Source of the DNA: Desulfoferula mesophila
GTDB taxonomy: Bacteria; Desulfobacterota; Desulfarculia; Desulfarculales; Desulfarculaceae
DNA length: 64,000 nt
Direction of reading: 5' to 3'
Assembly: GCF_037076455.1 (NCBI RefSeq)
Contig: NZ_AP028679.1
Coordinates: 4,231,501-4,295,500, forward strand
The notes under the pieces are model-generated. The model saw only the letters and a list, made by a program, of their open reading frames with translations. It did no database searches and was not told the origin of the DNA. Position 1 is the stretch's first letter. Every line of letters starts with the position of its first letter. Positions 20,758 through 56,340 of the stretch are shown one piece after another. Made by a program: the position numbers and the translations under genes.

Positions 20758-20786
20758 GTTCTTAGCGTCCCAAAGGGAGCGAAAAA

Positions 20787-31015: not shown

Positions 31016-31051
31016 CTCATCCACTCCTTGGATTGTGCGGTTACAACAAGT

Positions 31052-32296: not shown

Positions 32297-32327
32297 CCGA
32301 CCGAATCTCCCACCTCGCGTGTCACCC

Positions 32328-34046
32328 CTAGAGAGCCACGGTGTCCGAGGCGGGCACGTAGCTGGCCGCCGGGTCGACCTTGGCCTCAACCACCACCGGG
32401 CCGTCCTGCTTGTGGGCCTCGCGCAGGGCGTCCTCCAGGCCGGAGAAGCTGTCCACCCGCATGCCCACGGCGCCCAGGCCCTCGGCGGTCTTGGCGAAGT
32501 TCACCTCGGCGAAGTCCACTCCTATCTTCTTGTCCCCCATGTTGTCGCGCACCATGCCCAGCCCGCAGTTGTTGGAGACCACGAACACAACCGGCACGTT
32601 GTGTTGGACGCAGGAGGCCACTACGTCGATGGTCATCAGGAAGCCACCATCGCCGGCCAGGCAGGTGACCCTCTTCTCGGGCAGGGCCAGCTTGGCCGCC
32701 GCCGCCGCGGGACCGCCCCAACCCATGCCGCCCACGCCGCCGGGCACCAGGATGTGGTTGGGGTGGCGGATGCGCAGGCTGTTGGTGTTCCAGATGCGGT
32801 TGCTGCCGGCGTCCAGGCTGACCACGTCGTCGGGACCCAGGAATTTCTGCACCGCAGCCACCACGTCGGTGTGGTGCAAGGTTCCCGGCGCGGAAGGCAG
32901 ACGGGGCGGATCGTTATAACCGGTATCCTCGCGCAGCTTATCGATGACCGCCTGACGCTTCGGCTTTTTGTCGGCGGGCAGGTTTTGCGCTTGCAGGTAG
33001 GCCACCACGTCGCGCACATCGCCCTGGATGGCCAGATCGACGGGGTAGACCCACCCCGCGTTGCGGGGATCGATATCCACCTGCACGATCTTCTGGTCGC
33101 CCGGACGGATCATCTTTGGATCGCGGAAGCGGGTGTAGTCCGGGCCCATGCTGGCGCCCAGGATGAGCACCAAGTCGGCCTTGGCCAGCATGCGGTTGGC
33201 GGTGGGGTTGCCCCAGGTGCCCAACATGCCGCAGGCCACCGGAGACAGCTCGTCCACCGTGCCTTTGCCGTTGTAGCTGGTCACCACCGCGCATCCCAGC
33301 TTTTCGGCCAACTCTTGCAGATCGGCGCCAATGCGGGCGTCGTACACCCCCTGGCCCGAAACGATGACCGGCTGCTCGGCCTCGATCAGCATCTGGGCCA
33401 GCTTGGCCAGGGACTCGGGGTCCGGCTTGGCGGGGCTGTAGGCCCAATAACCGTCCGGCGGGTAGAGCCGGGCCCGAGGCTCGGCGGGCATTTCCTCTTT
33501 GATGATGGTCGATTTCATGATTACCGCCGCCGGGCCCATGCGGGGAGTGGAGGCGTGCTTGTAGGCCATTTGGAAGCCGTACACCGCCGCCTCGGGCTCG
33601 GTGGCGTAGGTGCAATACTTGGTGATGGCCTTGAGGCTCTGCTGGATGTCGGCTCCGCCGTAATCGCCGGTCATGGTCTGGTACACGCCGTACTGGCCAA
33701 AGCCATCGTAGTCCGAGGTCTCGGTGAGCAACACCATGGGGGAGCCGGAGAAAAGGGCCTCCAGCACACCGAAGGAACCCGTGGTGGAGACCCAGGGGCC
33801 CTGCCCCATGAACACGCCGGGCTTGCCGGTGAGCCGGCCGGTAACCTGGGCCATCACCGAGGCCACCTGCTCGCTGCGGGTGAGGAAGACGTCTATTTCC
33901 TTGCGGCGCTCATAGAAGGCCGGCAAGGTCCAGGTCACTCCCAGCCCTGGGAGGGTGAAAACCCTTTTGACCCCCGCCTTGATAACATTGTCGACCACAA
34001 AATCGCGCGTCATTTGAGGCGCCGCCTTAAGCGGTGAAGTTGCCAT
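32328..34046 (-). CDS. Acetolactate synthase-like ThDP enzyme of an unusual subgroup (copy 2)
   Basis: 572-aa ThDP enzyme with the three-domain layout PYR, central and PP. Cofactor Glu is E59 in LTRSEQVASVMAQ; ThDP/Mg motif is GDGGFLM (465-471) with NN at 492-493. Between them it departs from known acetolactate synthases: GVFMGQGPWVSTTGSFG, LEALFSGSPMVLL, TSDYDGFGQYGVYQTMTGDY, then GASMGPDYTRFRDPKMIRPG and VDIDPRNAGWV. These are shared with the enzyme at 41754-43457 but not with Xsc or the enzyme at 39759. It lies immediately upstream of ackA-xsc and downstream of a GntR regulator. Single-chain sulfopyruvate decarboxylase-like activity, supplying sulfoacetaldehyde to Xsc, would fit the context, but a different 2-oxoacid or diketone cleavage is equally possible. 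Confidence 0.8.
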   Translation of the reverse strand: MATSPLKAAPQMTRDFVVDNVIKAGVKRVFTLPGLGVTWTLPAFYERRKEIDVFLTRSEQVASVMAQVTGRLTGKPGVFMGQGPWVSTTGSFGVLEALFSGSPMVLLTETSDYDGFGQYGVYQTMTGDYGGADIQQSLKAITKYCTYATEPEAAVYGFQMAYKHASTPRMGPAAVIMKSTIIKEEMPAEPRARLYPPDGYWAYSPAKPDPESLAKLAQMLIEAEQPVIVSGQGVYDARIGADLQELAEKLGCAVVTSYNGKGTVDELSPVACGMLGTWGNPTANRMLAKADLVLILGASMGPDYTRFRDPKMIRPGDQKIVQVDIDPRNAGWVYPVDLAIQGDVRDVVAYLQAQNLPADKKPKRQAVIDKLREDTGYNDPPRLPSAPGTLHHTDVVAAVQKFLGPDDVVSLDAGSNRIWNTNSLRIRHPNHILVPGGVGGMGWGGPAAAAAKLALPEKRVTCLAGDGGFLMTIDVVASCVQHNVPVVFVVSNNCGLGMVRDNMGDKKIGVDFAEVNFAKTAEGLGAVGMRVDSFSGLEDALREAHKQDGPVVVEAKVDPAASYVPASDTVAL

Positions 34047-34133: not shown

Positions 34134-34808
34134 TTATTTGATGCTGGCCAGGAACCTGTCCCGAGCCTTGTCGATATGATCGATGACAAAGCGTTCCAGC
34201 TTGTCGGGATCGGTTTGCGGGTTGTCGAACATATCCATTATCTTCACATGGTTCGCCAAATGACTGTCAAAGTCATCATCCTGATGGGGGAAAACCATGC
34301 GATGCCTATAACTGTGCAGTCGCAACATGCGCAGCAAGGCCGAGAGCAGCCCCAGCCCGCAGGCATTTATGAATGTGCTGTGGAACTTGTTATGGGACGC
34401 CCAAAAGCCATCGTGATCTTGACTCTCCGTGGCGACGCGCATCTGTTGGAGGGCCTTTCTCAAGGCCACCCTATCTTTCTCGTCCATGTTTAGGAAGGCG
34501 TATTTGGCGGCCAGGCCCTCCAACGGAGCACGCACGATGTGGCTTTCCTCGATGTCCTTTTTGGTGATTACCTTGACCACGGTGCCCTTGCGGGGCACGA
34601 TGTCCACAAGCCCCATCTTCTCCAGGTCTCGGATGGCCTCGCGGATGGGCGAGCGGCTGACCCCGAATTTCTTTTCCAGGTCCCGCTCCACCAACTTCTC
34701 TCCACCGGCCAATTCGCCGTTGACGATCGCCTCCTTGAGGAGACTGGTCAACTGCTGTCCGATGGCCTTAGGCCTAAAGTCCATATCATCTATGAACCGG
34801 GAGGACAT
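34134..34808 (-). CDS. GntR-family regulator, FadR/FCD subfamily
   Basis: 224 aa. The winged helix at residues 15-75 reads LTSLLKEAIVNGELAGGEKL, FGVSRSPIREAIRDLEKMG and VDIVPRKGTVV. The FCD effector domain at 80-220 carries likely metal-binding residues in HNKFHSTFIN and HLANHVKIMD. FCD regulators usually bind a small carboxylate or sulfonate. It sits between the TRAP genes and the ThDP-ackA-xsc genes. Candidate operators are GTATATAC in its own promoter (34842) and TATGGTCGACCATA upstream of the operon (41505). Confidence 0.9.
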   Translation of the reverse strand: MSSRFIDDMDFRPKAIGQQLTSLLKEAIVNGELAGGEKLVERDLEKKFGVSRSPIREAIRDLEKMGLVDIVPRKGTVVKVITKKDIEESHIVRAPLEGLAAKYAFLNMDEKDRVALRKALQQMRVATESQDHDGFWASHNKFHSTFINACGLGLLSALLRMLRLHSYRHRMVFPHQDDDFDSHLANHVKIMDMFDNPQTDPDKLERFVIDHIDKARDRFLASIK

Positions 34809-34878: not shown

Positions 34879-36168
34879 TCAATTCACAAAACCAAAGTAT
34901 TTTGGGAAAAACATCGTTATTTCTGGTACATATGTAACCAGCAACAACACGACTACCTCGGCCAACAGGAAAGGCATTATCCCTATACTAACCTTAGTGA
35001 GAGTTGTCTTGCAGATGCCGCACACCGCAAACAGCACCAAGCCAAAAGGCGGCGTGGCCAGCCCAATGGTGAGATTAACGCACATTATGAGCCCGAAATG
35101 GATGGGGTCCACGCCCATCTTGTAAGCTACCGGCGCCATTAACGGACCCAGCACTATAATGGCGAATCCCATGTCCAAAAACATGCCCACGACCAGTAGG
35201 ATCGCGTTGACAATCAGCAAGAAAATAATCTTGTCGTCCGTGATTGCCAAGAACATCGAGGCCACATGCTCCACTAGATTGTAGTAGGTCACCAACCAAC
35301 TGAAGCTCTTGGCACAAGCCAGCAGGAACATGAGCATGGCCGTGGACCTAACAGTGTGCTTTAGGATGGGAGCCAAATCCTTCAACTTGAGGGTCCGGTA
35401 ATAGATAAAGCCAACGAATAGGCCATAGAGCACGGCGATGGCCGAAGCCTGGGTAGGGCTGAAAAATCCGCCCAGGATGCCACCCATAATGATGACCGGC
35501 ATGAGCAGGGCCGGCACGCCACGGGCCACTGCCAAGAGTAGGTTCGTGACCCCAATGAAGGGGATACGCTCGCCGTAGCCCTTGCGCACCGCCACCAAAT
35601 AGGCGGCGGCCATTAGGGCCAGGCCCACCAGTATGCCCGGCACCATTCCGCCCAAGAACAGACCGGCGATGGACACGTTCATCACCGAGGCGTAGATGAG
35701 CATGGGGATGCTGGGCGGGATGATGGGCCCGATGACCGAACTGGCGGCGGTGACCGCAGCGCTGTAGGTCTCGCCATAGCCCTGCTTATTCATGGCCGGG
35801 ATCATGATGCTGCCGATGGCCACGGTATCCGACACGGCGGAACCTGTGATGCCGGCGAAAAGCATGCTGGCCACGATGTTGGTGTGGGCTAGTCCGCCGC
35901 GCATGAAGCCTACCAGGGCCGAGGCAAGGTTCATGAGCTTGTCGGTAATTTGAGCGCGATTCATCACCTCGCCGGTCATGATGAAGAAGGGAATGGCCAA
36001 CAGCAGCGGATCCTCCATGCTGGCCACCATCTTCTGCGGAATTTGCATGAAAAGTCGAGGATCGCCCATTTGGTAGTAGACAAATATGGTCGTCAACACC
36101 AGGCAGAACGCGACGGGTACCCCGATCAACATCATCGGGAAGAACGTGGAAAATATCAGTGCGACCAT
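34879..36168 (-). CDS. dctM: TRAP transporter large permease, DctM type
   Basis: 429-aa permease with about 12 hydrophobic spans. Motifs are IGVPVAFCLVLTT, LAIPFFIMTGEVMN, GSAVSDTVAIGSIMIPAM, SSVIGPIIPPSIPMLIYA and NLTIGLATPPFGLVLF. It follows the dctQ gene at 31 bases and is followed by the GntR gene. With the adjoining receptor it imports the substrate of the ThDP/xsc operon; TRAP systems TauKLM and HpsKLM are known for taurine and dihydroxypropanesulfonate. Confidence 0.94.
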   Translation of the reverse strand: MVALIFSTFFPMMLIGVPVAFCLVLTTIFVYYQMGDPRLFMQIPQKMVASMEDPLLLAIPFFIMTGEVMNRAQITDKLMNLASALVGFMRGGLAHTNIVASMLFAGITGSAVSDTVAIGSIMIPAMNKQGYGETYSAAVTAASSVIGPIIPPSIPMLIYASVMNVSIAGLFLGGMVPGILVGLALMAAAYLVAVRKGYGERIPFIGVTNLLLAVARGVPALLMPVIIMGGILGGFFSPTQASAIAVLYGLFVGFIYYRTLKLKDLAPILKHTVRSTAMLMFLLACAKSFSWLVTYYNLVEHVASMFLAITDDKIIFLLIVNAILLVVGMFLDMGFAIIVLGPLMAPVAYKMGVDPIHFGLIMCVNLTIGLATPPFGLVLFAVCGICKTTLTKVSIGIMPFLLAEVVVLLLVTYVPEITMFFPKYFGFVN

Positions 36169-36198
36169 GGTTTCACTTCTCCTGCCGTACGGGGAACC

Positions 36199-36708
36199 TT
36201 AATCCGGTTGCGCATTCAATTCTTTTTTTCTGGGGTCGGGCAACACGTAGGCGATACTGAAAATGCCCAGAATCAGCCCCGCCACGGGCACCGCGAAATA
36301 GTACCAAGACATGTTTATGTCCAAATAAAGGGATGATTGGGATTTGCCGACAAACCTGGCGAGTTGCGTACCATATTGCACCATCACCCAAACGACGACC
36401 AAGGCGAGCAGCGCATGGAGCACCTTAAACCCGTATTGGACCGGAGAAGAAAAGCGCTCTGTGATGGTGTCTACACCGATATGCCCACCGTATCGGGCGA
36501 TGACCCCCGCGCCCAGCAGGGCGACCCAAATGAACAGTAGGGTGTTGACCTCTTCGGTCCAGGGGATGGATTCGCCCACAAAGTGATCGAAAAACATGCC
36601 CAAGGTGGTGTTAAACAACAGCAGCCCGGCCAGTAAGATCACTACGGCATAGGTTGCTTTTTCCAGGTAGTCCAACGCCGTATGAAAAGAGGATAAAAAC
36701 TTTTGCAT
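36199..36708 (-). CDS. dctQ: TRAP transporter small permease, DctQ type
   Basis: 169 aa, four spans (about residues 17-37, 48-66, 90-110, 132-155). FFDHFVGESIPWTEEVNTLLFIW (read as FFDHFVGESIPWTEE and VNTLLFIW) and ARYGGHIGVDTITERF fit DctQ. It is separated from dctP by a strong GC-rich hairpin. Confidence 0.9.
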   Translation of the reverse strand: MQKFLSSFHTALDYLEKATYAVVILLAGLLLFNTTLGMFFDHFVGESIPWTEEVNTLLFIWVALLGAGVIARYGGHIGVDTITERFSSPVQYGFKVLHALLALVVVWVMVQYGTQLARFVGKSQSSLYLDINMSWYYFAVPVAGLILGIFSIAYVLPDPRKKELNAQPD

Positions 36709-36741
36709 GGTCAGGCTCCCTGTTATCGAACTAAGTGGTTC

Positions 36742-36774
36742 GGCGGCCGGCCCTGCCCCCGTGGACCGGCCGCC
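36742..36774 (-). terminator. GC-rich hairpin between dctP and dctQ
   Basis: Minus strand GGCGGCCGGTCC and GGGCCGGCCGCC form a 12-pair stem (one G-U) around a nine-base loop, ten bases after the dctP stop. There is no T-run. Position and kind match the hairpins at 20722 and 49928. Confidence 0.6.
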
Positions 36775-36783
36775 GCATAAAGC

Positions 36784-37863
36784 CTACTTAATGTTCAATT
36801 GGGTCTGTATTTCCTGGGCCAGCTCTTCCTCGGCCTTTTTGGAAGCGGCGAAGATCTTGTCTACCCACTTCTGACCGTTCTCGCCGATCTTGCGGACGGT
36901 GAAGTCAATATAGGGCTTCTGGCCCAACTTCTTGAATTCCTCAAGCTGCGCATCAGTGGGATAGTAAAATTTGCATCCCTGTTTCTTGAGTGCCTCCACC
37001 ACAGCGATCTCGGTGGCGTAAGAATAGGAATTCATAACTTCGCGGCAGATGTCGGCGCCGCGCAGAATAATTTTTTGATATTCCGGGGAAAGCGACCGGA
37101 AGAATTTCTCGTTGATCATCAGGGGGTGCAGGTTGTAGCTGTGCCGGGTCATGGTGATGTTCTTGCAAACCTCGTACAGCTTGACCGAGTACATGGAGTA
37201 TAGTTCGGTTTCGCAGGCCTGGGCCATACCGGTCTGCAAGGCGGTGTAGAGTTCCTTCCAGTTCACGGTTACCGTACGGGCCCCATAGGCGCGGAACATG
37301 GCCAGTAAACCGGGGTTTTCGGGCACACGAACCTTCATCCCCTTTAGGTCGGCAACGCTCTTGACCAGCTTATCCTTAGTATAAAGATTTCGATAACCGG
37401 AGCCTTCGGGCCAAATCAGCACCCTGAGCCCAGTGTTCTTGAGAAACAGTTCGGTCAGTTCCTTGCCCACCGGTCCGGCCATGACCTTCCAGGCCACGCG
37501 GTTGTCTTTGAACAAATAGGGAATTTGGGTGACCGCCACTTCCGGCGCAAAGGGAACCATAATCGAGGTGTACGTGCCGACCATTTGGATGACACCGGTT
37601 TGGCACTGCTCGATCATTGCCCTGACGCCGCCCAGAGAGTAGTTGGGATGTATCTCGAAGGTTATGCCTCCGTTGGTAGCGGCTTCCACGTAGTTGGCAA
37701 AGGCCAAAACGCCGGCGGTGCGGCCCGCACCGGGCATGCGCATTTCGCCTTCTGAACCGTGTCCCAGTCTGATGACTATCGGTTTGTCCGCGGCCGCAGC
37801 CGCACCCACTAGGGCAAGCACCAGCAGCCCCGCCAAGAGCAAAGCAACTATTGATCGTTTCAT
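36784..37863 (-). CDS. dctP: TRAP transporter substrate-binding protein, DctP type
   Basis: 359-aa periplasmic receptor with a clear signal peptide (MKRSIVALLLAGLLVLALVG, cleavage near AAAADKP). IRLGHGSEGEMRMPG opens the first domain; LKGMKVRVPENPGLLAMFRA has the conserved substrate Arg; NWKELYTALQTGMAQACETE is the hinge helix. Its ligand is unknown; context suggests a C2-C3 sulfonate or hydroxy acid. It is encoded 46 bases after the hydroxyacyl-CoA dehydrogenase gene. Confidence 0.93.
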   Translation of the reverse strand: MKRSIVALLLAGLLVLALVGAAAAADKPIVIRLGHGSEGEMRMPGAGRTAGVLAFANYVEAATNGGITFEIHPNYSLGGVRAMIEQCQTGVIQMVGTYTSIMVPFAPEVAVTQIPYLFKDNRVAWKVMAGPVGKELTELFLKNTGLRVLIWPEGSGYRNLYTKDKLVKSVADLKGMKVRVPENPGLLAMFRAYGARTVTVNWKELYTALQTGMAQACETELYSMYSVKLYEVCKNITMTRHSYNLHPLMINEKFFRSLSPEYQKIILRGADICREVMNSYSYATEIAVVEALKKQGCKFYYPTDAQLEEFKKLGQKPYIDFTVRKIGENGQKWVDKIFAASKKAEEELAQEIQTQLNIK

Positions 37864-37909: not shown

Positions 37910-38893
37910 CTAAGACTCGTTTTGCGGCCTTTCCGAAAAAAGGATGTCCATGACCACTTTTTTGACCTTGAGCAATTTGAGATCGCGCTCGCGCAGGACC
38001 TCGGTGGTATCGCGCCCGGCGTAATCGAAAAAGCCACGTCCGGTTTTCACCCCGTAGTGACCTTGGGCCACCAGCTCCTGGAGAATGGCCGGGGCCTCTT
38101 GGCGCTCCTCCTCACTCAGAGGCGCTTCTTGGATGCCCGAGAGCACCATGTCCAATCCCGCGTAGTCGTAACGGGCCACCGCTCCCAGCACGGGCAGACG
38201 GATGCCGATGCTGGCCCGCACGGCGCGGTCGATCTCCCGGGGATCGGCCACCTCCTGGCCCAGCAAATGAAAAACCTCGCGCCCCATGGCCCGTTGAAAA
38301 CGATTGACGATAAAACCGGGCACGAACTTTTTGAGCGCCACGCAGACCATGCCCAAGCTTTCGAACAGCGCCTTTACCCGCATTACCTCCGGCTGGGGCG
38401 TGCGCGGAGCACCCACCACCTCCACCAGGGGGATGATGTAGGGAGGCGTGAAGAAATGGGTCATCATGAAACGTTGGTTCAAAGCGGGGGGAATGAGCTC
38501 AAAGGCGTTAAGAAAGGAGGTGTTGCTGCTAACCAAGGTATGCGGCCCCAAATGAGGCGCCAGAGTGGCAAACAACTCCCGCTTTACCTCCCTTTTTTCA
38601 ATAACCGCCTCTACCACCAGGTCCGATCGGCCAACCGCCTCTTGCCAGCTCTCCGAGGTGTCCACCAGGTCCAAAACCTGGGAGGGGGTTCGGCCCGCCG
38701 CATCGGCGAGGCCGAGGTGCTCCAGGTGTGAAGCCATAAGGTCGCGGGCTTTTAGCAGTTGCGCAGCCTGATGATCCGCCAGGCATACCCGGTGACCACC
38801 CAAAGCCAAGAGCATGGCAATGCCGTGGCCCATGGTGCCGGCCCCGATCACGGTGGCCGTGTATTTTACTTGGCTTAGGCTTGCGTCCCGCAT
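37910..38893 (-). CDS. 3-hydroxyacyl-CoA dehydrogenase-family NAD enzyme
   Basis: 327 aa. The Rossmann N-terminus has VIGAGTMGHGIAMLLALGG (GxGxxG) and an Asp-type NAD selector (CLADHQ). The catalytic His is in MMTHFFTPPYIIPLVEVV, preceded by SSNTSFLNAFE. The C-terminal helical domain ends GHYGVKTGRGFFDY. The HFFTPP loop differs from the HFFNP of fatty-acid enzymes. This places it with family members acting on free hydroxy acids or carnitine-like compounds, so oxidation of a small hydroxy acid or hydroxysulfonate is plausible. Confidence 0.88.
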   Translation of the reverse strand: MRDASLSQVKYTATVIGAGTMGHGIAMLLALGGHRVCLADHQAAQLLKARDLMASHLEHLGLADAAGRTPSQVLDLVDTSESWQEAVGRSDLVVEAVIEKREVKRELFATLAPHLGPHTLVSSNTSFLNAFELIPPALNQRFMMTHFFTPPYIIPLVEVVGAPRTPQPEVMRVKALFESLGMVCVALKKFVPGFIVNRFQRAMGREVFHLLGQEVADPREIDRAVRASIGIRLPVLGAVARYDYAGLDMVLSGIQEAPLSEEERQEAPAILQELVAQGHYGVKTGRGFFDYAGRDTTEVLRERDLKLLKVKKVVMDILFSERPQNES

Positions 38894-38915: not shown

Positions 38916-39734
38916 CTAGTACATAACCGCGCCCGCCGAGACGTTGATGTCCTGGCCGGTCACGGCCCGTGCATCGGGAAGGCATAAAAACGCCACCACT
39001 CCGGCCACGTCCTCGGGATCCACCAGTGTCTGCAGCGGCGAGGCGGCGGCCTTTTTTTGGCGCAACTGCTCCACGCTCTCGCCGGTGCGGCGGCTTACGG
39101 CTTGCAGAATTTGGTCTTGGCGAGGGCCGGCCACCGCGCCGGGGCATACCGCATTGACGCGCACTCCCCAGGGCCCGGCCTCGGCGGCCAGGGTCCTGGT
39201 GAGGCCTATAACGGCCATTTTGGAGGCGGCATAGGGGGTACGTTGCACCAAGGGGCGTTTGGCGCTGACTGAGCTGACGTTGACGATGCACCCCCCACGG
39301 TGCACCTTCATGATCGGCATCGCGTGCTTGCAGCAAAGGAAAACGCCCCGCAGGTTCACCGCCATGGTGTCTTCCCACTCCCCCAGGGTTATCTCTTCGA
39401 TCGGAGCGGTGGGACCGGCTATGCCCGAGTTGTTAACCAGGATGTCCAGACGGTCTTGCAGGCCCAGGGCACGGGCCATCAGATTCTTGACCTGCTCCTC
39501 GCTGGAGACGTCGGCGGCGAAGACCTCAGCCGGTGCCCCTCCCTCTTCGGCGATGAATTGGGCGGTTTCGTGGCAGCCGGTTAGGTTCACGTCACCCAAA
39601 ACCAGGTGAGCCCCCTCCGCAGCCAGGCGCAGCGCAATGGCCCGGCCTATACCCTGACCTCCGCCGGTGACCACGGCCACCTGCCCGGACAAGGGGCCCG
39701 TTTGATCGACAAGTGGCGTGGCTGCAGGGCTCAT
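38916..39734 (-). CDS. Short-chain dehydrogenase/reductase
   Basis: 272-aa classical SDR: TGGGQGIGRAIALRLA cofactor loop, VLGDVN selector (Asp, so NAD), NNSGIAGP, catalytic SSVSAKRPLVQRTPYAASK (Ser, Tyr, Lys), and the C-terminal TGQDINVSAGAVMY. Coding regions on both sides are 23-25 bases away, so it belongs to the long minus-strand operon. It is not a close relative of the two SDRs at 43475 and 45313, which lack the second loop glycine. Probably oxidises a secondary alcohol of the imported substrate. Confidence 0.93.
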   Translation of the reverse strand: MSPAATPLVDQTGPLSGQVAVVTGGGQGIGRAIALRLAAEGAHLVLGDVNLTGCHETAQFIAEEGGAPAEVFAADVSSEEQVKNLMARALGLQDRLDILVNNSGIAGPTAPIEEITLGEWEDTMAVNLRGVFLCCKHAMPIMKVHRGGCIVNVSSVSAKRPLVQRTPYAASKMAVIGLTRTLAAEAGPWGVRVNAVCPGAVAGPRQDQILQAVSRRTGESVEQLRQKKAAASPLQTLVDPEDVAGVVAFLCLPDARAVTGQDINVSAGAVMY

Positions 39735-39758: not shown

Positions 39759-41456
39759 CTAGCCGCCGGCCCACTGGGGTTGCCAGGGCACGGGGGAAAG
39801 ACAGTCAATGTCGGTCATCACTTCCACCAGGCTGGGGCGGCCCGAGGCCAGGGCTTCGGTGATGGCCGGACCGATGCGCGCGGGGTCCTCCACCCGTTCA
39901 CCTTCGCAACCCATCTCCCGGGCTACTTGGGCCAAGTTGACCTTGTGGAATAGATACTGGTCTTCCTTTCGGCCCGGATGCTGGCCATAGGCGCCGCGGA
40001 TGCCCCGCAGGCACTGGCCGTAGCCTCCGTTGTTGTTGACCAGCACCACCACCGGGATATTCCAGCGAGCCGCGGTCTCCAACTCGGAGAGGTGGTAATA
40101 GAGGCCGCCGTCGCCGGTGAAGCAAACCACCGGCCGCTCCGGAGCCCCGCACTTGACTCCCAGGGAGGCCGGGAAGGCCCAACCCAGGGAACCGCCCGTG
40201 GCCCGGATATAGCGCTGGCCCGGCTTGGCCAGCTCGATCATGGTCCCGCTCCAAATGGCCGAGTTGCCAGTGCAGGAAACCAGGATGGCGTTTTCGGGCA
40301 GGGCCTTGGTAACCTCGCGGCACAGGCGTTCAGGGCGGATGGGCCGGGCGTCGGAACTCATCAAGAGCTCCACCTCCGCCCGCCAAGCCCGCACCAACTC
40401 CGCCGCGCGGCGGCTCCAATCGGTTTCTCCACGTTGGGGTTTCACCGTCTGGGCCAGCAGGCCCACGGCCACCTTGGCGTCACCGATCAACGAACAGAGA
40501 TTGGGGTAGTTCACCCCCACCTGAGCGGGCTCGATGTTCACCTCGATGACCTGGGTGCCCGACCTGGGGATGCTCCACATGTTGGTCACCTGGTCGCCGG
40601 TGCCCGAGCCCACGAATAGCACCAGGTCTGCCTCGGAGACGCATTGGTTGGCGCACCAGCGGCTGTAGGTGCCCACCGGCCCCAGGCAGAGGGGATGCCC
40701 AGGGGGCACCATCCCGTTGCCGTCCACCGCGTAGGCGATGGGCATGGCCAGCTTCTCGGCCAGGGCCAGTATCTCGGGGCCCGCTTCAGAGATCACCGCC
40801 CCGCTGCCGGCCACAATCACCGGGTGCTCGGCCTTTTCGAGTGCCTCGACCGCCTTTTCCACGTCTGCCGCGGCCGGCGCGGGGCGCTCGGCCGGATAAG
40901 CTGCATAGCGCTCCTCGCAGACCATAGACAACTCGCCGGCTGCGCGCTCCAACTCGTCGCCCAGGATGCCGTACACGTCGATATGGGCCGGGCCGGGGCA
41001 ACCGGTGGTGGCCTCGCGGAAGGCCTGGCGCAGCAGGAGGGGGAGTTGGCTAAGGGTGTTTACCTCCACGTTATATTTGGTCACCGGCTCATAATAGGGG
41101 CGGTGATAGACCTCCTGGTAGGCGTTGCGATAGCGGTGGGACACTTGCTTCTGCCCGGTGATGGCCACCACCGGCGAGTGGGCCAGCCAGGGCTCCTGCA
41201 GGCCGGCGGCCATGTTGCCCGCGCCCACCGACTGGGCCATGCACACCGCCGGCTTGCCGGTGGCCCGGGCCATACCGTCGGCCATGTAGACGGCCGACTT
41301 CTCGGCGTGGGTCACAATTCGCTTGATCCCCAGCTCCTCCAAGCGGATCAGGGTCTGCCGCAGGACGGCTTCCACATAAAAGACATGGGTGATTCCATAG
41401 CCTTTAATGGCCTCAGCCAGGATTTGGGCTCCATTCGCTTGGTTGGAGGACTCCAT
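39759..41456 (-). CDS. Acetolactate synthase-like ThDP enzyme (copy 3)
   Basis: 565 aa from ATG 41456 (GAGAAAG upstream); the frame extends to 41531 without similarity. Cofactor Glu is in IVTHAEKSAVYMADGMARA; ThDP motif GDGGLYYHL with NNN downstream (VLVNNNGGYG). The central domain has VIVAGSGAVISEAG. It is a full-length ThDP lyase/decarboxylase but not in the same subgroup as the enzymes at 32328 and 41754, having the ordinary MAQSVGAGN and AHSPVVAITG segments. First gene of the operon that ends in xsc. Reaction unknown; decarboxylation of a 2-oxoacid is the default reading. Confidence 0.85.
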   Translation of the reverse strand: MESSNQANGAQILAEAIKGYGITHVFYVEAVLRQTLIRLEELGIKRIVTHAEKSAVYMADGMARATGKPAVCMAQSVGAGNMAAGLQEPWLAHSPVVAITGQKQVSHRYRNAYQEVYHRPYYEPVTKYNVEVNTLSQLPLLLRQAFREATTGCPGPAHIDVYGILGDELERAAGELSMVCEERYAAYPAERPAPAAADVEKAVEALEKAEHPVIVAGSGAVISEAGPEILALAEKLAMPIAYAVDGNGMVPPGHPLCLGPVGTYSRWCANQCVSEADLVLFVGSGTGDQVTNMWSIPRSGTQVIEVNIEPAQVGVNYPNLCSLIGDAKVAVGLLAQTVKPQRGETDWSRRAAELVRAWRAEVELLMSSDARPIRPERLCREVTKALPENAILVSCTGNSAIWSGTMIELAKPGQRYIRATGGSLGWAFPASLGVKCGAPERPVVCFTGDGGLYYHLSELETAARWNIPVVVLVNNNGGYGQCLRGIRGAYGQHPGRKEDQYLFHKVNLAQVAREMGCEGERVEDPARIGPAITEALASGRPSLVEVMTDIDCLSPVPWQPQWAGG

Positions 41457-41504
41457 ACTGACTTTCTCGCAAAAATTTTGTTTGATAGTGGTTTTACAGT
41501 GTGC

Positions 41505-41518
41505 TATGGTCGACCATA
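41505..41518. promoter_or_regulatory. Perfect palindrome TATGGTCGACCATA upstream of the long operon
   Basis: The core TGGT-CG-ACCA resembles the TGGTnnnACCA half-site layout of FadR-type GntR regulators, with a spacer one base shorter. It lies 49 bases before the ThDP gene at 41456 and about 235 bases before the divergent ThDP gene at 41754, so one regulator could control both operons. The GntR gene at 34134 is the candidate. The rest of 41519-41753 shows no gene. Confidence 0.5.
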
Positions 41519-41753
41519 ACAGCAATTGCAAACGCGTGTCAAGCCAATTCGGCCGCTGGAGGCAAAAAGGTTAACTAGTGAATATTTGGGGTAAAACCTT
41601 TTGGCGCCAATCATGGAGCCCACTGGCGGCTGCCTTTACCTTTCCCCTTACATGCCCGGCGATGATAGCCGGCGAGCCCTTCCTATCTAAAGGTCTGGCA
41701 TCAGGGCCGGACCGCAACGATTCATAGACGGCCGTAATTCAGGAGGAACTGAA

Positions 41754-43457
41754 GTGTCTGATGTCAAAACTCGCGACAAGATGGTGGATGTGTTCATCCA
41801 AGCTGGAATCAAACAAATCTTTACATTCCCTGGTTTGGGAATCACCTGGCTGGCCCCGGCCTTCTATGAGCGTCGCGATGAAATCCAGGTTATTTTGGGC
41901 CGCAGCGAACAATCGGCTTCCATCATGGCCCAAGCCTACGGCCGAATAAAGGACGCACCCGGCGTGTTTATGGGCCAAGGCCCCTGGGCGGTGACCACCG
42001 GCGCCTTTGGCTGCCTGGAGGCCTTCTTCTCCGGCACCCCCATGATGTTCCTTGCCTGCACCTCCGATTACAACGGCATGGGCGCCTACGGAGTTTATCA
42101 GTCCATGACCGGTGACTACGGCGCAGGCGACGCCAAGGCCTCCATCTCCCATCTTTGCAAGTACTCCAGCTTGGCCACCCGCCCCGACGAGGCTATCTTC
42201 GGCATGCAGATGGCCCTCAAGCATTGCAACACCCCCCGCAAGGGCGTGGGCGCCCTGATCTTCCGAACCGATTTCGTGCGCGAGGACTACCCGGCGGTGC
42301 TCAAGAGCACGGTCTACGACACCACCAACTACCTGCTCTACACCCCGCCCTCCCCCAACCAGGAGGCCATGGACAAGCTGGCCGAGATGATCAACCAGGC
42401 CAAGCGCCCGGTGGTGCTGGCCGGTTTCGGCGCACGCCAGGCCGGGGCGGGCGAGGCCCTGTTCAAGCTGGCCAACGAGGTGGGCCTGGGCGTGGTCACC
42501 AGCACCAACGGCAAGAGCATCATCGATGAGACCTCGGCGGTGTGCGCCGGCACCATGGGCTCCTTCGGCGGCACCAAGGCCTCGCACCGGCTCCTAGCCG
42601 AGTCGGACATGGTGCTCATCCTGGGAGCCAGCCTGGGGGCCGACTACACCCGCTTCCGCGACCCAGGCATGATCCGCCCGGGCAGCCAGAAGTTGGTGCA
42701 GGTGGACATCGACCCGCGCAACGCCTCCTGGGTGGTGCCGGTGGATCTGCCTATTACCGGCGATTGCAAGGACGTGGTGGAGTACCTGCTGGCCAAGAAG
42801 CTGGACAGCTCCAATAAAGAGGCCCGCATGAACTGGATCACCAAGCTCAAGGAGCGCAACAAATACGACGAAGTTCGCACCTTCAACAACGCGCCGGGCA
42901 AGGTGCACTACGCTGACGTATACAACGCCCTGAACCGCTATATGACCGCCGATGACCTGCTGGTGACCGATGCGGGCAACAACAGCATCTGGTGCAAACA
43001 CATCATCCGCTGCCGCTACCCCAACCATTACATCACCCCAGGCGGCACAGGGGCCATGGGCTGGGGCGCGCCGGCTGCAGTGGGCGTGAAGTTCGCCTGC
43101 CCGGACAAGCGGGTGACCATGGTGGCCGGCGACGGCGGCTTCATGATGACCCACGACGCAGTGGCCACCGCGGTGCAGTTCAATCAGCCCATCACCTTCG
43201 TAGTACTCAACAACTCGGGCCTGGGCATGGTGCGCGACAACCAGCTCAACAACATGGTCTACTGCAACTTCGGCTACATCAACTTCTCCGAGATGGCTCG
43301 CGGCATGGGCGCCGAGGCGATGCAGGTTGATTCGAGCGACACCTTCATGGACGCGCTCAAGGCCTCCCACGACAGCAATAAGGTCACGGTAATTGAGGTG
43401 GCTCTGGACCCCGAGGCGCGGCATGGCGACGCCACGGACATGGGCTCCCTTTTCTAA
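41754..43457 (+). CDS. Acetolactate synthase-like ThDP enzyme of an unusual subgroup (copy 1)
   Basis: 567 aa from GTG 41754 with AGGAGG seven bases upstream. Cofactor Glu is E52 in LGRSEQSASIMAQ; ThDP motif GDGGFMM near residue 459 with NNSGLGMVRDN downstream. It shares with the enzyme at 32328 the rare segments GVFMGQGPWAVTTGAFG, TSDYNGMGAYGVYQSMTGDY, GADYTRFRDPGMIRPG, VDIDPRNASWVVPVDLP and PGGTGAMGWGAPAA. It is followed at short intervals by SDR, MDR, SDR, MDR, amidohydrolase and TRAP genes. It may cleave or decarboxylate the ketone made by those dehydrogenases. IolD- or cyclohexanedione hydrolase-like ring opening is an alternative. Confidence 0.8.
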   Translation: MSDVKTRDKMVDVFIQAGIKQIFTFPGLGITWLAPAFYERRDEIQVILGRSEQSASIMAQAYGRIKDAPGVFMGQGPWAVTTGAFGCLEAFFSGTPMMFLACTSDYNGMGAYGVYQSMTGDYGAGDAKASISHLCKYSSLATRPDEAIFGMQMALKHCNTPRKGVGALIFRTDFVREDYPAVLKSTVYDTTNYLLYTPPSPNQEAMDKLAEMINQAKRPVVLAGFGARQAGAGEALFKLANEVGLGVVTSTNGKSIIDETSAVCAGTMGSFGGTKASHRLLAESDMVLILGASLGADYTRFRDPGMIRPGSQKLVQVDIDPRNASWVVPVDLPITGDCKDVVEYLLAKKLDSSNKEARMNWITKLKERNKYDEVRTFNNAPGKVHYADVYNALNRYMTADDLLVTDAGNNSIWCKHIIRCRYPNHYITPGGTGAMGWGAPAAVGVKFACPDKRVTMVAGDGGFMMTHDAVATAVQFNQPITFVVLNNSGLGMVRDNQLNNMVYCNFGYINFSEMARGMGAEAMQVDSSDTFMDALKASHDSNKVTVIEVALDPEARHGDATDMGSLF

Positions 43458-43474: not shown

Positions 43475-44245
43475 ATGAGCAGCGATAGACCGGTAGCCCT
43501 GGTGGCCGGCGGAGCCAACAACATAGGCGCAGCCACTGCACGCCTCATGGCCGAGGACCATTTCGTGGTGGTTGCCGATATGGGAGACCCCACGGCGGTG
43601 GTGCATGAGCTGGGACCGGAGCGGGCGATGGGCCTACGCGGCGACATCAGCAACTATGACGACTGCCGAGCCTGGGTGGACGAGGCCGAAAAGCATGGCC
43701 CCCTCAAAAGCCTAATCAACACCGTGGGCATTAGCTCGCCCGGCGAGTTCGTGGAAAACCTTGACCTGGACGAATGGGACCGGGTGCTCAAGGTGAACCT
43801 GACCGGCAGCTTCTACCTATCGCGAGCGGCTATCCCGGCCCTGAAGCGTTCGGGCTTCTCCGACAAGTCAATCGTGCTCATCTCCTCCCGCTCGGGCAAG
43901 GGCGGCACCGCCAGCCTTGGCTCTACCAAGATGTCCAAGGCCCACTATTGCTGCTCCAAGGCCGGGGTGATCTGCCTGGTCAAGTGCCTGGCCTACGAGC
44001 TGAGCGAAGATCAGATACGGGTAAACAGCGTGGCCCCGGGCCCCATCAAGAGCCTCAATCCCGATGGTCGCCCGGGGGCCACCATCAACCCGGACTTCTG
44101 GGAGAGCATCGCCCAGAGGGTGCCACTCAAGCGCATGGGTGAACCTGAAGACATAGCCAATGCCTGCCGCTTCCTTTGCTCGGACCAGGCCCGCTTCATA
44201 ACCGGGCACACCATGGACGTCAACGGTGGCACCCTTATGGATTGA
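43475..44245 (+). CDS. SDR-family oxidoreductase, first of a duplicated pair
   Basis: 256 aa. The nucleotide loop reads AGGANNIGAATARLM, with Asn where the second Gly of GxxxGxG is usual. VVVADMGD gives an Asp selector for NAD. The NNAG motif is changed to NTVG. Catalytic Ser is in LISSRSGKGG and Tyr/Lys in AHYCCSKAG, after an inserted STKMSK. C-terminal ITGHTMDVNGGTLMD. The same changes and the same last eight residues are found in the SDR at 45313, so they are duplicates. Seventeen bases after the ThDP gene. Confidence 0.92.
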   Translation: MSSDRPVALVAGGANNIGAATARLMAEDHFVVVADMGDPTAVVHELGPERAMGLRGDISNYDDCRAWVDEAEKHGPLKSLINTVGISSPGEFVENLDLDEWDRVLKVNLTGSFYLSRAAIPALKRSGFSDKSIVLISSRSGKGGTASLGSTKMSKAHYCCSKAGVICLVKCLAYELSEDQIRVNSVAPGPIKSLNPDGRPGATINPDFWESIAQRVPLKRMGEPEDIANACRFLCSDQARFITGHTMDVNGGTLMD

Positions 44246-44263
44246 GGACCCGGAGCACAACAC

Positions 44264-45286
44264 ATGAAAGCAGTGATTTGTTCGCGGAAGCAGGGCCTGG
44301 TCTTCACCGAGGTGCCCACACCCCAGGCGGGCCCGGGCGAGGTGGTGGTCCGCGTGGCTGACACCGGAGTCTGCGGCTCTGACATATCGTTCATCAAGAA
44401 GGGCTTTTTTGAAGAAGGCTACATCCTGGGGCACGAGATAAGCGCGGTGGTGCACCAGGTGGGTCAAGGGGTGGAGGGTATAGAGCCCGGCCAGCGGGTG
44501 ATGATGCGGCCCACCTTTTGCGGCCAATGCGCTTTTTGCACCAGCGGCAAGCCCCACTTTTGCTCGGAGTACCGCCGCCTGCTGGGGGTGCGCGACCTGC
44601 CCGGCGGATTCGCGGAGTATGTGCGGGTGTTGCCGGGCATGCTCATCCCCATCCCCGAGGGGGTGGACTCGCGCAACGCGGCCCTGGCCGAGGTCTTCGC
44701 CTCGTCCTATCACGGCCTGAATTGCTCACAAGCCCAGGGCGGCTCGGCCCTGGTCATGGGCGGCGGGCCCATAGGTTTGGCCATGGTGGCCCTGCTCAAG
44801 CTGCACGGATTCGGCCCCATCCTGCTCAGCGAGCCGGTGGCGGCCAAGCGGGAAGTGGGCCTGGCCTTCGGGGCCGACGCGGCGGTGGACCCCTTGCGGG
44901 AAAACCTGGGCTACCACGTCTTCGACCTCACCCAGGATCGTGGATTTGACGCCGTCTTCGAGTGCTCGGGCATCGCAGACAACGTGCCCCTGGCCCTGGA
45001 TTTCATCGCCGTGCAGGGGCGCATCACCGTGGTGAGCGTCATCAGCGACTTCGCCCGCATCCCCATGCGGCGCCTGACCTTCACCGAAGCCAAGCTCACC
45101 GCCTCCATCTCCAACACCCACGAGGAAAACAAGCAAATATTACAGTGGATGGCCCAAGGGCGCCTGGACGGCCGCCCCATGATCAGCGAGATCATCAGCC
45201 TGGAGGAGCTACCTCAGGTTTTTAACGAACGCATCCTGGCCGGCAAGTCGATCAAGACCCTGTTAAAAATCGGGCCCGAATTCTAG
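44264..45286 (+). CDS. Zinc-dependent medium-chain dehydrogenase (MDR), first of a duplicated pair
   Basis: 340 aa. Catalytic Zn ligands: Cys in DTGVCGSDISFIKKG and GHE. The structural Zn loop has CGQCAFCTSGKPHFC. The NAD fold is MGGGPIGLAMVALLKLHG with SEP as selector region. The family includes threonine, sorbitol and butanediol dehydrogenases, enzymes acting on secondary alcohols of polyols. It lies between the two SDR genes at 18-27 bases, so the SDR-MDR pair is co-transcribed. Confidence 0.92.
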   Translation: MKAVICSRKQGLVFTEVPTPQAGPGEVVVRVADTGVCGSDISFIKKGFFEEGYILGHEISAVVHQVGQGVEGIEPGQRVMMRPTFCGQCAFCTSGKPHFCSEYRRLLGVRDLPGGFAEYVRVLPGMLIPIPEGVDSRNAALAEVFASSYHGLNCSQAQGGSALVMGGGPIGLAMVALLKLHGFGPILLSEPVAAKREVGLAFGADAAVDPLRENLGYHVFDLTQDRGFDAVFECSGIADNVPLALDFIAVQGRITVVSVISDFARIPMRRLTFTEAKLTASISNTHEENKQILQWMAQGRLDGRPMISEIISLEELPQVFNERILAGKSIKTLLKIGPEF

Positions 45287-45312
45287 GGTCCGTGAGGAAA
45301 AGAAGACTATCG

Positions 45313-46056
45313 ATGAGCGATAATAGAGAAGTGGTCCTAATAAGCGGCGCTGCCAGCAACATCGGTCTGGCCTGCGCCCAACGTTTCGCCCGCGACCACT
45401 TCGTGGTCTTGGCCGACCTGGGGGACGCTGGCCAACAGGCCCAGGCCATCGGCGGCAACGCCCTGGCGTTGCAAGGCGACGTGACCAACCCGGATGACTG
45501 CGCGCAGTGGGTGGCTCAGGCCCGCAATGAGGGCCCTTTGAAGGCCGTAGTGCATTCGGCGGGCATCACCAAACCGGCCAAGCCCATCGAACAAACCAGC
45601 TTGGAAGAATGGGAAAGCGTCATCCGGGTGAACCTAACCGGAGCCTTCAATATGTGCCGAGCAGCCATACCGGCCCTGCGGGAGTACGGACCGGGGGCGG
45701 CCATGGTGCTGGTCAGTTCCCGCGCCTCCAAAACCGGCTTCGCCGCCCTGGGGGCCAACTCCGGCGCCACCAAGGCCCACTACTGCGCCTCCAAGGCGGG
45801 AGTCAACTCGCTGACCAAGTCCCTGGCCGTGGAATTGGCGGTAGAGGGCATCCGGGTGAACTGCGTGGCGCCCGGCCCCATGGAAGGCACGATGATACCG
45901 CAGGCCCAATGGGGGACCTTGGCGGCCAAGGTGCCTCTGGGCCGCCTGGGAAAACCTGAGGAGATCGCCGAAGCCGCCTATTTCTTGTGTTCCCCAAAAG
46001 CCGCCTTTATCACCGGTCACATCCTGGACGTGAATGGCGGCACCCTTATGGACTAA
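45313..46056 (+). CDS. SDR-family oxidoreductase, second of a duplicated pair
   Basis: 247 aa from ATG 45313 (GAGGAAAAG upstream). Nucleotide loop SGAASNIGLACAQRF, again with Asn at the second Gly position; selector VVLADLGD; HSAG in place of NNAG; catalytic VSSRASKTG and AHYCASKAG after an inserted SGATK; C-terminal ITGHILDVNGGTLMD. About half of the residues match the SDR at 43475 in my alignment by eye. Probably the same reaction on the other enantiomer or on a later intermediate. Confidence 0.92.
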   Translation: MSDNREVVLISGAASNIGLACAQRFARDHFVVLADLGDAGQQAQAIGGNALALQGDVTNPDDCAQWVAQARNEGPLKAVVHSAGITKPAKPIEQTSLEEWESVIRVNLTGAFNMCRAAIPALREYGPGAAMVLVSSRASKTGFAALGANSGATKAHYCASKAGVNSLTKSLAVELAVEGIRVNCVAPGPMEGTMIPQAQWGTLAAKVPLGRLGKPEEIAEAAYFLCSPKAAFITGHILDVNGGTLMD

Positions 46057-46087
46057 CTCCGCCACCGGCGGATAGGGAGGCAACGAT

Positions 46088-47140
46088 ATGCTCGCCGTGG
46101 TCAAGGACCTGCCCCAGGCCCAACGCGTGGCGGTAATGGAAGTGCCGGAGCCCAAACTCCAACCCGGCTGGGTGCTGGTCAAGGTGGAGCTGGCCGGCAT
46201 TTGCGGCAGTGACCTGCACGCCTACCACTGGACTCCCGACTATCAGGAGCGTTTCGCCGGCATGCTGCCCGCCATCCTGGGCCACGAGTACACCGGCGTG
46301 GTGCAAGAGCTGGGGCCGGGGGTGGAGGACGTGGCCGTAGGCGACCGGGTGGTCTCGCGCACCCCCATCTCCTGCGGGCGCTGCCCCGCCTGTCTGGCCG
46401 GGCAAGAGGCCATTTGCGACCACCGGCGGCTTCTGGGAGTGCACTACGCGGGTGCCATGGCCCAATACGTGGCCGTGCCGGCGCGCAACTGCCACGTGCT
46501 GCCTCCAGATTACCCGGTGGAGCTGGCGGTATTGTCTGAGCCCATATCCATCGCCTTCAACGCGGTGCTCAAGTTGGGCAGCATGCAAGGGCGCAACGTC
46601 GCCATCATCGGCCCGGGACCCATCGGCTACCTGGTGGCCCTGCTGGCCGAGCTAGGTGGAGCCAACCGCATTTTCGTGCTGGGCCTGCCCAAGGATGAAC
46701 CCCGCCTGGCCATCTTCCAGGAAAACCTGGCCCGGGTTAGCACCGCCACGAACCTGGACGAGATGCAGGACCTGATCAAAGAACGGACTAGGAGCGGAGG
46801 AGCCGACGCGGCGTTTGAGGTGAGTGGTGCGCCCGTGGGCCTGGACATAGGCCTGCGGCTGGTACGCAAACGGGGCACGGTGGTGCTCCTGGGCATTATC
46901 TCCTCTACGGCCCAGGTCAATACCAACCTGGCGGTGCGCACAGAAACCACCATCATTGGCTCACCCGCCGCCCCGGAGCGCACCTGGAGGCGCATGTTGG
47001 ATTATCTGGCCAACCTTCCCGAGGCGAACCAGGCTTCCTTCATGCGGGCCATCGGTGAGACCTTGCCCCTGGAAAAGGCCGCGGAGGCTATCGAGCGCCT
47101 GGCCGCGGGACAGGGGTTCAAGACGGTTCTGCGCCCTTAG
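46088..47140 (+). CDS. Zinc-dependent medium-chain dehydrogenase (MDR), second of a duplicated pair
   Basis: 350 aa. Catalytic Zn: Cys in LAGICGSDLHAYHWTP and GHEYTG; structural Zn CGRCPACLAGQEAIC; NAD fold IGPGPIGYLVALLAELGG. GGAGG lies eight bases before the ATG. It is homologous to the MDR at 44264 but clearly diverged. Together the two SDRs and two MDRs give four dehydrogenases in a row. Confidence 0.92.
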   Translation: MLAVVKDLPQAQRVAVMEVPEPKLQPGWVLVKVELAGICGSDLHAYHWTPDYQERFAGMLPAILGHEYTGVVQELGPGVEDVAVGDRVVSRTPISCGRCPACLAGQEAICDHRRLLGVHYAGAMAQYVAVPARNCHVLPPDYPVELAVLSEPISIAFNAVLKLGSMQGRNVAIIGPGPIGYLVALLAELGGANRIFVLGLPKDEPRLAIFQENLARVSTATNLDEMQDLIKERTRSGGADAAFEVSGAPVGLDIGLRLVRKRGTVVLLGIISSTAQVNTNLAVRTETTIIGSPAAPERTWRRMLDYLANLPEANQASFMRAIGETLPLEKAAEAIERLAAGQGFKTVLRP

Positions 47141-48758: not shown

Positions 48759-48854
48759 ACCGCAGGAAGGCCCATGATAAAAGGCCTCCGACGGAGTGGA
48801 TGTGTCATTAGTCGATACCTAACAACACAAAAGCAAAGTAGAGGAGGGCGAAAG

Positions 48855-49901: not shown

Positions 49902-49927
49902 GGGGGCGCGCGGCCTTATAGGAAGTT

Positions 49928-49953
49928 GGTTCCCCGGCAAGGGCCGGGGAGCC
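49928..49953 (+). terminator. GC-rich hairpin between dctP and dctQ
   Basis: GGTTCCCCGGC and GCCGGGGAGCC form an 11-pair stem (one G-U) around AAGG, 26 bases after the dctP stop, without a T-run. It is the third example of such a hairpin in this window. Confidence 0.6.
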
Positions 49954-50039
49954 GGCTTCGCCCCAGCACCATTGAAAGGCAAAATGGCGGGCGCGGTTTT
50001 GCGCAACCTGTTCACCCATAAATTTCGGTGGTTACTGGC

Positions 50040-50552: not shown

Positions 50553-50564
50553 AGGAACGCTGAG

Positions 50565-56238: not shown

Positions 56239-56278
56239 TGTGAATGGCGGAGTAAGTGCGGGACAGTTGGCGGTCTAA
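55496..56278 (+). pseudogene. IS3-family transposase OrfB, third type, truncated at its C-terminus
   Basis: The catalytic D in QLWQTDFTYFKI, D in LLSDNGPCYLAG and E in TQGKIERY are all present, but the frame passes into IS21-type sequence at 56239 (…ERY then VNGGVSAGQLAV) and stops at 56278. About the last 30-60 residues usually following the catalytic Glu are missing, so activity is doubtful. Confidence 0.88.
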
Positions 56279-56340
56279 AACCGTGACACTTGTTTTAGAG
56301 ATATAGTCCTGTTGTTCATGCTGTCAATCATGATCTTGCC

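What the first reader, a model, noticed from the sequence alone, without database searches (positions are those of the whole stretch)
43475..47140. Duplicated SDR-MDR dehydrogenase pairs in tandem
The order SDR-MDR-SDR-MDR is seen. Both SDRs share an Asn in place of the second glycine of the nucleotide loop (GANNIG, AASNIG), altered NNAG motifs (NTVG, HSAG), an insert before the catalytic Tyr and an identical DVNGGTLMD end. This points to tandem duplication of a two-gene unit followed by divergence. Paired SDR/MDR enzymes can interconvert two stereoisomers through a ketone, as the dehydrogenases HpsO and HpsP are proposed to do for dihydroxypropanesulfonate. Here the unit precedes a ThDP enzyme that could consume the ketone.
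Basis: partly seen in the sequence, partly recalled or inferred. Interest (0 to 1): 0.65.

Follow-up and report, generated by a model that had tools for sequence, protein, structure and literature searches.

The report
Sulfonate-breakdown gene cluster with doubled dehydrogenases
A sulfate-reducer-type bacterium carries two related short-chain and two unrelated zinc alcohol dehydrogenases beside thiamine enzymes and a known sulfonate-cleaving enzyme, pointing to an unstudied route for eating sulfonated alcohols rather than to one copied pair of genes.

Summary
The four genes, their order and the SDR motifs are as described, but the ThDP enzyme lies upstream (41754-43457), not downstream. The duplication model fails for the pair: SDR1 and SDR2 are close paralogues (50-52%), whereas MDR1 and MDR2 (29%) have different origins (AU p 3e-35; MDR1 has 49-55% orthologues in 11 other Desulfobacterota genomes, MDR2 a 43% one). 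The shared SDR oddities are hallmarks of a wider SDR family that sits directly beside a ThDP1/ThDP3-type enzyme in 23 of 78 loci. The doubled partners are more likely ThDP and SDR; the MDRs joined separately.

The context is organosulfonate catabolism. The core conserved in three genomes of the genus ends in acetate kinase and a true sulfoacetaldehyde acetyltransferase (Xsc). Genomes with this ThDP type carry Xsc in 39 of 47 cases, against 31/250 and 32/289 in order and class samples. In other sulfate reducers the MDR1 orthologue stands with Xsc, AckA and DsrP. HpsO/HpsP are now reported to oxidise C3 without a ketone, so the cited precedent fails. Best guess: SDRs and MDRs oxidise a hydroxysulfonate, ThDP enzymes cleave the product to sulfoacetaldehyde, Xsc frees sulfite. 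Substrate unknown.

The parts
41754..43457 (+). ThDP1, three-domain ThDP enzyme heading the operon
   Evidence: Pfam TPP_enzyme N, M and C; 51% to ThDP3; below every NCBIfam cut-off shown
43475..44245 (+). SDR1, diverged member of the Asn-loop SDR family
44264..45286 (+). MDR1, zinc alcohol dehydrogenase
   Evidence: Pfam; 49-55% orthologues in 11 phylum genomes outside the genus
45313..46056 (+). SDR2, conserved member of the same SDR family (longest ORF starts at 45292)
   Evidence: 65% to L049 gene
46088..47140 (+). MDR2, zinc alcohol dehydrogenase of other origin
   Evidence: Pfam; 43% orthologue in G177; AU test
39759..41531 (-). ThDP2, second ThDP subfamily, divergent operon
   Evidence: conserved with HCDH in 9 of 78 loci
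38916..39734 (-). SDR3
37910..38893 (-). HCDH, 3-hydroxyacyl-CoA-dehydrogenase-type oxidoreductase
34879..37863 (-). TRAP transporter DctP, DctQ, DctM
   Evidence: ORFs; in the table the matching genes are kept in G001 and G006; DctP-type by PDB relatives; DctQ and DctM named by me from sequence
34134..34808 (-). GntR/FCD regulator
32328..34046 (-). ThDP3, conserved member of the ThDP1/ThDP3 type
31052..32389 (-). AckA, acetate kinase (start codon uncertain, overlaps ThDP3)
   Evidence: TIGR00016 461 vs 293.4 bits
29285..31024 (-). Xsc, sulfoacetaldehyde acetyltransferase
   Evidence: TIGR03457 733.6 vs 676.4 bits

Best explanation
The cluster is a catabolic island for a hydroxylated organosulfonate, or for a mixture of its stereoisomers. 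Proposed order: TRAP import; NAD-linked oxidation of the sulfonated alcohol by SDR1/SDR2 and the zinc enzymes MDR1/MDR2; ThDP-dependent C-C cleavage or decarboxylation by ThDP1/ThDP3 (ThDP2 in an earlier or side step) to sulfoacetaldehyde; Xsc turns sulfoacetaldehyde and phosphate into acetyl phosphate and sulfite; AckA makes ATP; sulfite serves as electron acceptor. Shown here: gene content, conservation in three genomes, Xsc and AckA by curated cut-offs, co-occurrence of the ThDP type with Xsc, adjacency of the SDR family to the ThDP type, and separate origins of the MDRs. Inferred: substrate, order of steps, the ThDP reaction, and the use of sulfite (DsrP seen only in relatives). In origin the doubled unit is more likely ThDP with SDR, the MDRs having been added independently.
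For: Xsc and AckA over cut-off in the window and the core kept in G001 and G006 with Xsc at 89%. Xsc over cut-off in 39 of 47 genomes holding the ThDP type against 31 of 250 and 32 of 289 in samples; Fisher p 1e-25 overall, 1e-10 for the beta rows. Xsc inside 5 of 78 loci, all over cut-off. An SDR2-type gene in 27 of 78 loci, 23 directly beside the ThDP gene. MDR1 orthologue with Xsc, AckA and DsrP in L184, with the same layout in L187 and Xsc also in L183. No ComE-type match in the window's genome. A ThDP enzyme releasing sulfoacetaldehyde is known from the sulfo-TK pathway (PMC12890257, passages).
Against: No substrate is shown. Xsc is common in catabolically rich genomes; the samples were not matched for family or genome size. 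73 of 78 loci have no Xsc within the stretch held. MDR1 orthologues also stand with a 2-oxoacid dehydrogenase complex (L182), PLP decarboxylases (L181, L186) and sulfatases (L186), so MDR1 need not be sulfonate-specific. PhyH and SMP-30 neighbours in other loci are unexplained. The ThDP model matches acetolactate-synthase-like folds only. DctP gives no clear ligand.
Confidence: 0.55

Rival explanations
1. Sulfolactate route: the SDRs and MDRs are stereo-complementary sulfolactate dehydrogenases giving sulfopyruvate, and ThDP1/ThDP3 are single-chain sulfopyruvate decarboxylases in place of ComDE. This is the most specific version of the best explanation.
For: The MDR1 clusters of L184 and L187 hold carrier, MDR, SDR, ThDP, Xsc and AckA, enough for such a route. 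ComE-type genes are over cut-off in 5 of 48 genomes, none in the window's own.
Against: ThDP1/3 have the three-domain build of acetolactate synthases, unlike the ComDE subunits (recalled). MDRs acting on 2-hydroxy acids are unusual (recalled). Nothing distinguishes sulfolactate from other substrates here.
Confidence: 0.2
2. DHPS route: SDR and MDR enzymes oxidise R- and S-DHPS as HpsO and HpsP do, and the product is cleaved by ThDP enzymes.
For: HpsO is an SDR for R-DHPS and HpsP a zinc MDR for S-DHPS (PMC11131964, passages); Xsc in the core.
Against: SDR2 has Ala where HpsO has Gln147 and a 21-residue Ser-Tyr spacing against 13. No sulfolactaldehyde dehydrogenase is part of the conserved core.
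Confidence: 0.15
3. Non-sulfonate diol or acyloin catabolism: the dehydrogenases make an alpha-hydroxyketone or diketone from a diol or polyol and the ThDP enzymes cleave it; Xsc belongs to a neighbouring, unrelated pathway.
For: MDR1 and MDR2 orthologues stand beside 2-oxoacid dehydrogenase complexes in L182 and L188; an own-genome SDR-MDR pair stands beside such genes (L032, my reading of the translations). The best NCBIfam matches of the MDRs are inositol and threonine dehydrogenases, below cut-off.
Against: Xsc enrichment and one operon-like run from ThDP2 to Xsc in three genomes.
Confidence: 0.2
4. One reading: tandem duplication of a two-gene SDR-MDR unit whose pairs interconvert stereoisomers through a ketone.
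For: SDR1/SDR2 50% identity; their sister relation is not rejected (AU p 0.41).
Against: MDR1 with MDR2 as one clade is rejected (p 3.4e-35); both have closer orthologues elsewhere; HpsO and HpsP act at C3.
Confidence: 0.03

Closest known systems
HpsO / HpsP / HpsN, DHPS dehydrogenases (PMC11131964, passages read)
   Same: An SDR and a zinc MDR used side by side on sulfonated alcohols.
   Different: No ThDP partner is described there; SDR2 lacks HpsO's Gln147 and spacing; HpsN is not among the core genes.
Xsc / AckA branch of sulfonate catabolism
   Same: Xsc over its curated cut-off with acetate kinase next to it.
   Different: The upstream part, a ThDP-SDR-MDR set, is not one I found described (listings).
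Desulfovibrio sp. DF1 DHPS pathway, DhpA-SlaB-SuyAB (PMC6278857, passages read)
   Same: Anaerobic C3-sulfonate use with sulfite as electron acceptor.
   Different: DhpA is a beta-hydroxyacid dehydrogenase and SuyAB, not Xsc, releases sulfite.
Sulfo-TK pathway, SqwGH (PMC12890257, passages read)
   Same: A ThDP enzyme cleaves a sulfonated ketone to sulfoacetaldehyde.
   Different: SqwGH is a transketolase in sulfoquinovose breakdown; ThDP1/3 are acetolactate-synthase-like.
Rhodobacterales MDR plus acetolactate-synthase-like gene clusters on plasmids (L043, L044, L155, L157)
   Same: An MDR beside a ThDP gene.
   Different: Branched-chain-type ABC transporters and only distant ThDP relatives, 31% or ThDP2-like.

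Membership tests
Tandem duplicated SDR-MDR unit | SDR1 and SDR2 are close paralogues | tested here: met
   50% identity; sister relation not rejected, p 0.41
Tandem duplicated SDR-MDR unit | MDR1 and MDR2 are sisters | tested here: not met
   29%; AU p 3.4e-35
HpsO (R-DHPS dehydrogenase) | Gln two residues after the catalytic Ser, Ser-Tyr spacing of 13 | tested here: not met
   SDR2: Ala138 and spacing 21 against Ser145, Gln147, Tyr158 in the paper
HpsO (R-DHPS dehydrogenase) | Oxidation of R-DHPS at C3 | not testable with these tools
   needs enzyme assay
HpsP (S-DHPS dehydrogenase) | Zinc MDR with the GHE motif | tested here: met
   GHE and a four-Cys lobe in MDR1 and MDR2; shared by many MDRs, so weak
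HpsP (S-DHPS dehydrogenase) | Oxidation of S-DHPS at C3 | not testable with these tools
   needs enzyme assay
Xsc (gene at 29285-31024) | TIGR03457 over cut-off | tested here: met
   733.6 vs 676.4 bits
Xsc (ThDP1) | Xsc models over cut-off | tested here: not met
   PRK07525 183.1 vs 620 bits
Acetolactate synthase (ThDP1, ThDP3) | TIGR00118 over cut-off | tested here: not met
   248.2 and 259.6 vs 538.35 bits
ComDE sulfopyruvate decarboxylase | TIGR03846 match in the window's genome | tested here: not met
   no match in G000 at E<=1e-15; over cut-off in 5 of 48 genomes
Sulfopyruvate decarboxylase activity (ThDP1/ThDP3) | Sulfoacetaldehyde from sulfopyruvate | not testable with these tools
   needs enzyme assay

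The most novel reading that the evidence does not exclude
ThDP1/ThDP3 define an undescribed sulfoacetaldehyde-forming ThDP enzyme family, with a dedicated Asn-loop SDR partner, that feeds Xsc in Alphaproteobacteria, Burkholderiales and sulfate reducers: a widespread organosulfonate pathway with an unidentified substrate, to which Desulfarculaceae added two unrelated zinc dehydrogenases and coupled sulfite respiration.
Probability: 0.4. Interest if true: 0.75.

Novelty: new variant of a known kind. Interest (0 to 1): 0.52.

Why it matters
If right, it adds an uncharacterised entry to the Xsc branch of the organosulfur cycle, present in aerobic proteobacteria and in relatives of sulfate reducers, and gives two linked marker genes (the ThDP1/3 type and its SDR) with a testable product, sulfoacetaldehyde. 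It also shows how an operon can mix true paralogues with unrelated dehydrogenases so that it looks like a duplicated pair.

Tried and rejected
Duplication of the SDR-MDR pair: rejected for the MDRs. First SDR tree: wrong, because minus-strand loci had not been reverse-complemented; redone, and one search is not used. Deep position of ThDP1 against ThDP3: unresolved, four tested groupings p 0.14-0.24. SDR model and fold search: ordinary SDR fold, the insert (141-148) poorly predicted, no substrate hint. ThDP fold search: acetolactate-synthase-like only. DctP nearest solved relatives: mixed. BbmA literature: nothing relevant in the listing. Searches for a prior description of such a cluster (listings only) showed none that I recognised; most subscription papers are not in that library.

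Choice of rows: 47 of the 77 loci outside the genus (L047 and L125 left out) were put to the whole-genome searches, picked by me to span the main groups because a call takes at most 50; the other 30 were not searched. Of the 8 of 47 below the Xsc cut-off, 3 (G439, G473, G481) have partial matches that look like contig-edge fragments. The split into alpha and beta is mine and uncertain for some MAGs. The MDR1/Xsc count (at least 4 of 11, p 0.004) is a lower bound on a count from two different draws: the 265 genomes need not contain all 11. The ThDP tree uses 22 of the loci, chosen by me for speed; one search used 37.
Full report
What is there. The four genes run in one direction with short gaps: SDR1 43475-44245, MDR1 44264-45286, SDR2 (ATG 45313)-46056, MDR2 46088-47140. 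A ThDP enzyme, ThDP1 (41754-43457), heads the operon 17 bases before SDR1; the finding placed it after the unit. Divergent to it run ThDP2, SDR3, an HCDH-type oxidoreductase, a TRAP transporter, a GntR regulator, ThDP3, acetate kinase and Xsc. Xsc passes its curated cut-off (733.6 vs 676.4 bits). ThDP1 and ThDP3 are 51% identical.

Conservation. Two other genomes of the genus, G001 and G006, keep the same order on both sides, from MDR2 to Xsc. G001's contig has the length of JAIPEN010000004.1, a Desulfarculaceae MAG. Of 60 relatives searched, 3, the window's own genome among them, held SDR1-type genes at E<=1e-40; of 395 phylum genomes, 3 held SDR2-type genes at E<=1e-55. The genes outside the core in this window (amidohydrolase, second TRAP transporter, aldehyde dehydrogenase, aminotransferase) were not found with the core in the stretches held of the sister genomes, apart from a 34% aminotransferase match on the other strand in L046.

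Duplication. SDR1 and SDR2 are 50% identical. In the own genome SDR2 is SDR1's best match after itself, the next SDRs reaching at most 40%. MDR1 and MDR2 share 29%. MDR1 has 49-55% orthologues in 11 of 297 phylum genomes outside the genus, MDR2 a 43% one. One clade of MDR1 and MDR2 is rejected, p 3.4e-35. In the tree SDR1, SDR2 and the Desulfobacterales gene form one group (87/85) whose inner order is not resolved.

The ThDP-SDR link. A scan with a ThDP1/ThDP3 alignment gave 79 loci; one (L125) is a distant relative at 25%, and 78 were used. An SDR2-type gene lies in 27 of 78, in 23 directly beside the ThDP gene on the same strand. MDR1 and MDR2 orthologues appear in 1 of 78, the sister genome L047. 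So the widely kept partnership is ThDP with SDR. In the window's genus both partners exist twice, with ThDP1 and SDR1 on long branches and ThDP3 and SDR2 on shorter ones. A doubled ThDP-SDR unit would explain this, but the trees do not prove it.

The sulfonate link. Of 47 genomes with the ThDP type, 39 have Xsc over the cut-off. Samples gave 31 of 250 in the order of a Burkholderiales member and 32 of 289 in the class of an alphaproteobacterial member, each counting its centre. Fisher tests: p 1e-25 overall; 17 of 22 against 30 of 249 for the beta rows, p 1e-10. These p values overstate the case, because relatives are not independent and the samples are not matched. Xsc lies inside 5 of the 78 loci, all over cut-off, with a Cons_hypoth698 membrane gene in L058 and a TauE gene in L078 nearby. 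ComE-type sulfopyruvate decarboxylase is over cut-off in 5 of 48 genomes, with no match in the window's own.

MDR1 elsewhere. Around MDR1 orthologues stand an MFS carrier, an SDR and a ThDP enzyme of another subfamily in several loci. In three loci of one family (L183, L184, L187) Xsc is there too; it was scored in L184 and L187 (846.7 and 844.9 bits). AckA is in L184 and L187. DsrP was scored in L184 (485.2 vs 350 bits), with look-alike ORFs in L183 and L187. Other loci differ: a 2-oxoacid dehydrogenase E2 in L182, PLP decarboxylases in L181 and L186, sulfatases in L186. Over the phylum, Xsc is over cut-off in 21 of 265 genomes, among them at least 4 of the 11 MDR1 genomes.

Mechanism. The simplest reading is oxidation of a hydroxysulfonate by the SDRs and MDRs, ThDP cleavage to sulfoacetaldehyde, then Xsc and AckA. 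ThDP cleavage to sulfoacetaldehyde has a precedent in the sulfo-TK pathway (PMC12890257, passages). The HpsO/HpsP precedent does not support a ketone shuttle: both oxidise C3 (PMC11131964, passages). SDR2 lacks HpsO's Gln and has a longer Ser-Tyr spacing. An Arg right after the catalytic Ser is invariant in 24 aligned family members and could bind an anion; that is inference. The substrate stays open; sulfolactate and DHPS are the leading candidates, and a non-sulfonate diol is not excluded.

Verdict. I place it as a new variant of Xsc-dependent sulfonate catabolism, with its biochemistry untested.

Noticed in passing
window 16595-22639: Enoyl-CoA hydratase, family III CoA-transferase, HpcH/HpaI lyase and a DctPQM TRAP transporter in a row. 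The gene set resembles an itaconate (ict-ich-ccl) operon with a TRAP carrier; that operon is named in an abstract in the listing.
   Followed up: no
window 47592-51839: Amidohydrolase (PRK09237 361.8 vs 371 bits, just under cut-off) and a second TRAP transporter follow MDR2 in this genome but not in the stretches held of the sister genomes.
   Followed up: partly
window 24690-28915: Alpha/beta hydrolase, class III aminotransferase and a methylmalonate-semialdehyde-type aldehyde dehydrogenase (535.4 vs 448.5 bits) lie beyond Xsc on the same strand; not part of the conserved core.
   Followed up: partly
window 11089-13315, 13984-15093, 52108-52968, 55496-58583: IS21-type transposase and helper genes at both ends, a phage-type integrase, and further transposase-like ORFs flank the island (the ORFs at 52108 and 55496 named by me from their translations).
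   Followed up: no
window 53684-55072: A helicase-like ORF of 462 aa that looks cut short and is followed by transposase-like ORFs; possibly a broken defence-type helicase (recalled, not searched).
   Followed up: no
L073 and L074 against window 34879-37863: The DctM permease is 72-74% identical between roseobacter loci and this Desulfarculaceae cluster, far above the dehydrogenases; suggests transfer of the ThDP2-HCDH-SDR-TRAP module.
   Followed up: no
L049 3181-4266: A URO-D-type (methyltransferase-like) gene lies between ThDP2- and ThDP3-type genes in the Desulfobacterales MAG, with a peptide-type ABC transporter by sequence.
   Followed up: no
L114 and other alphaproteobacterial loci; L070 and other loci: A PhyH dioxygenase gene (14 loci in the cluster count) or an SMP-30 lactonase gene (7 loci) recurs near the ThDP gene; either may hint at other substrates.
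   Followed up: no
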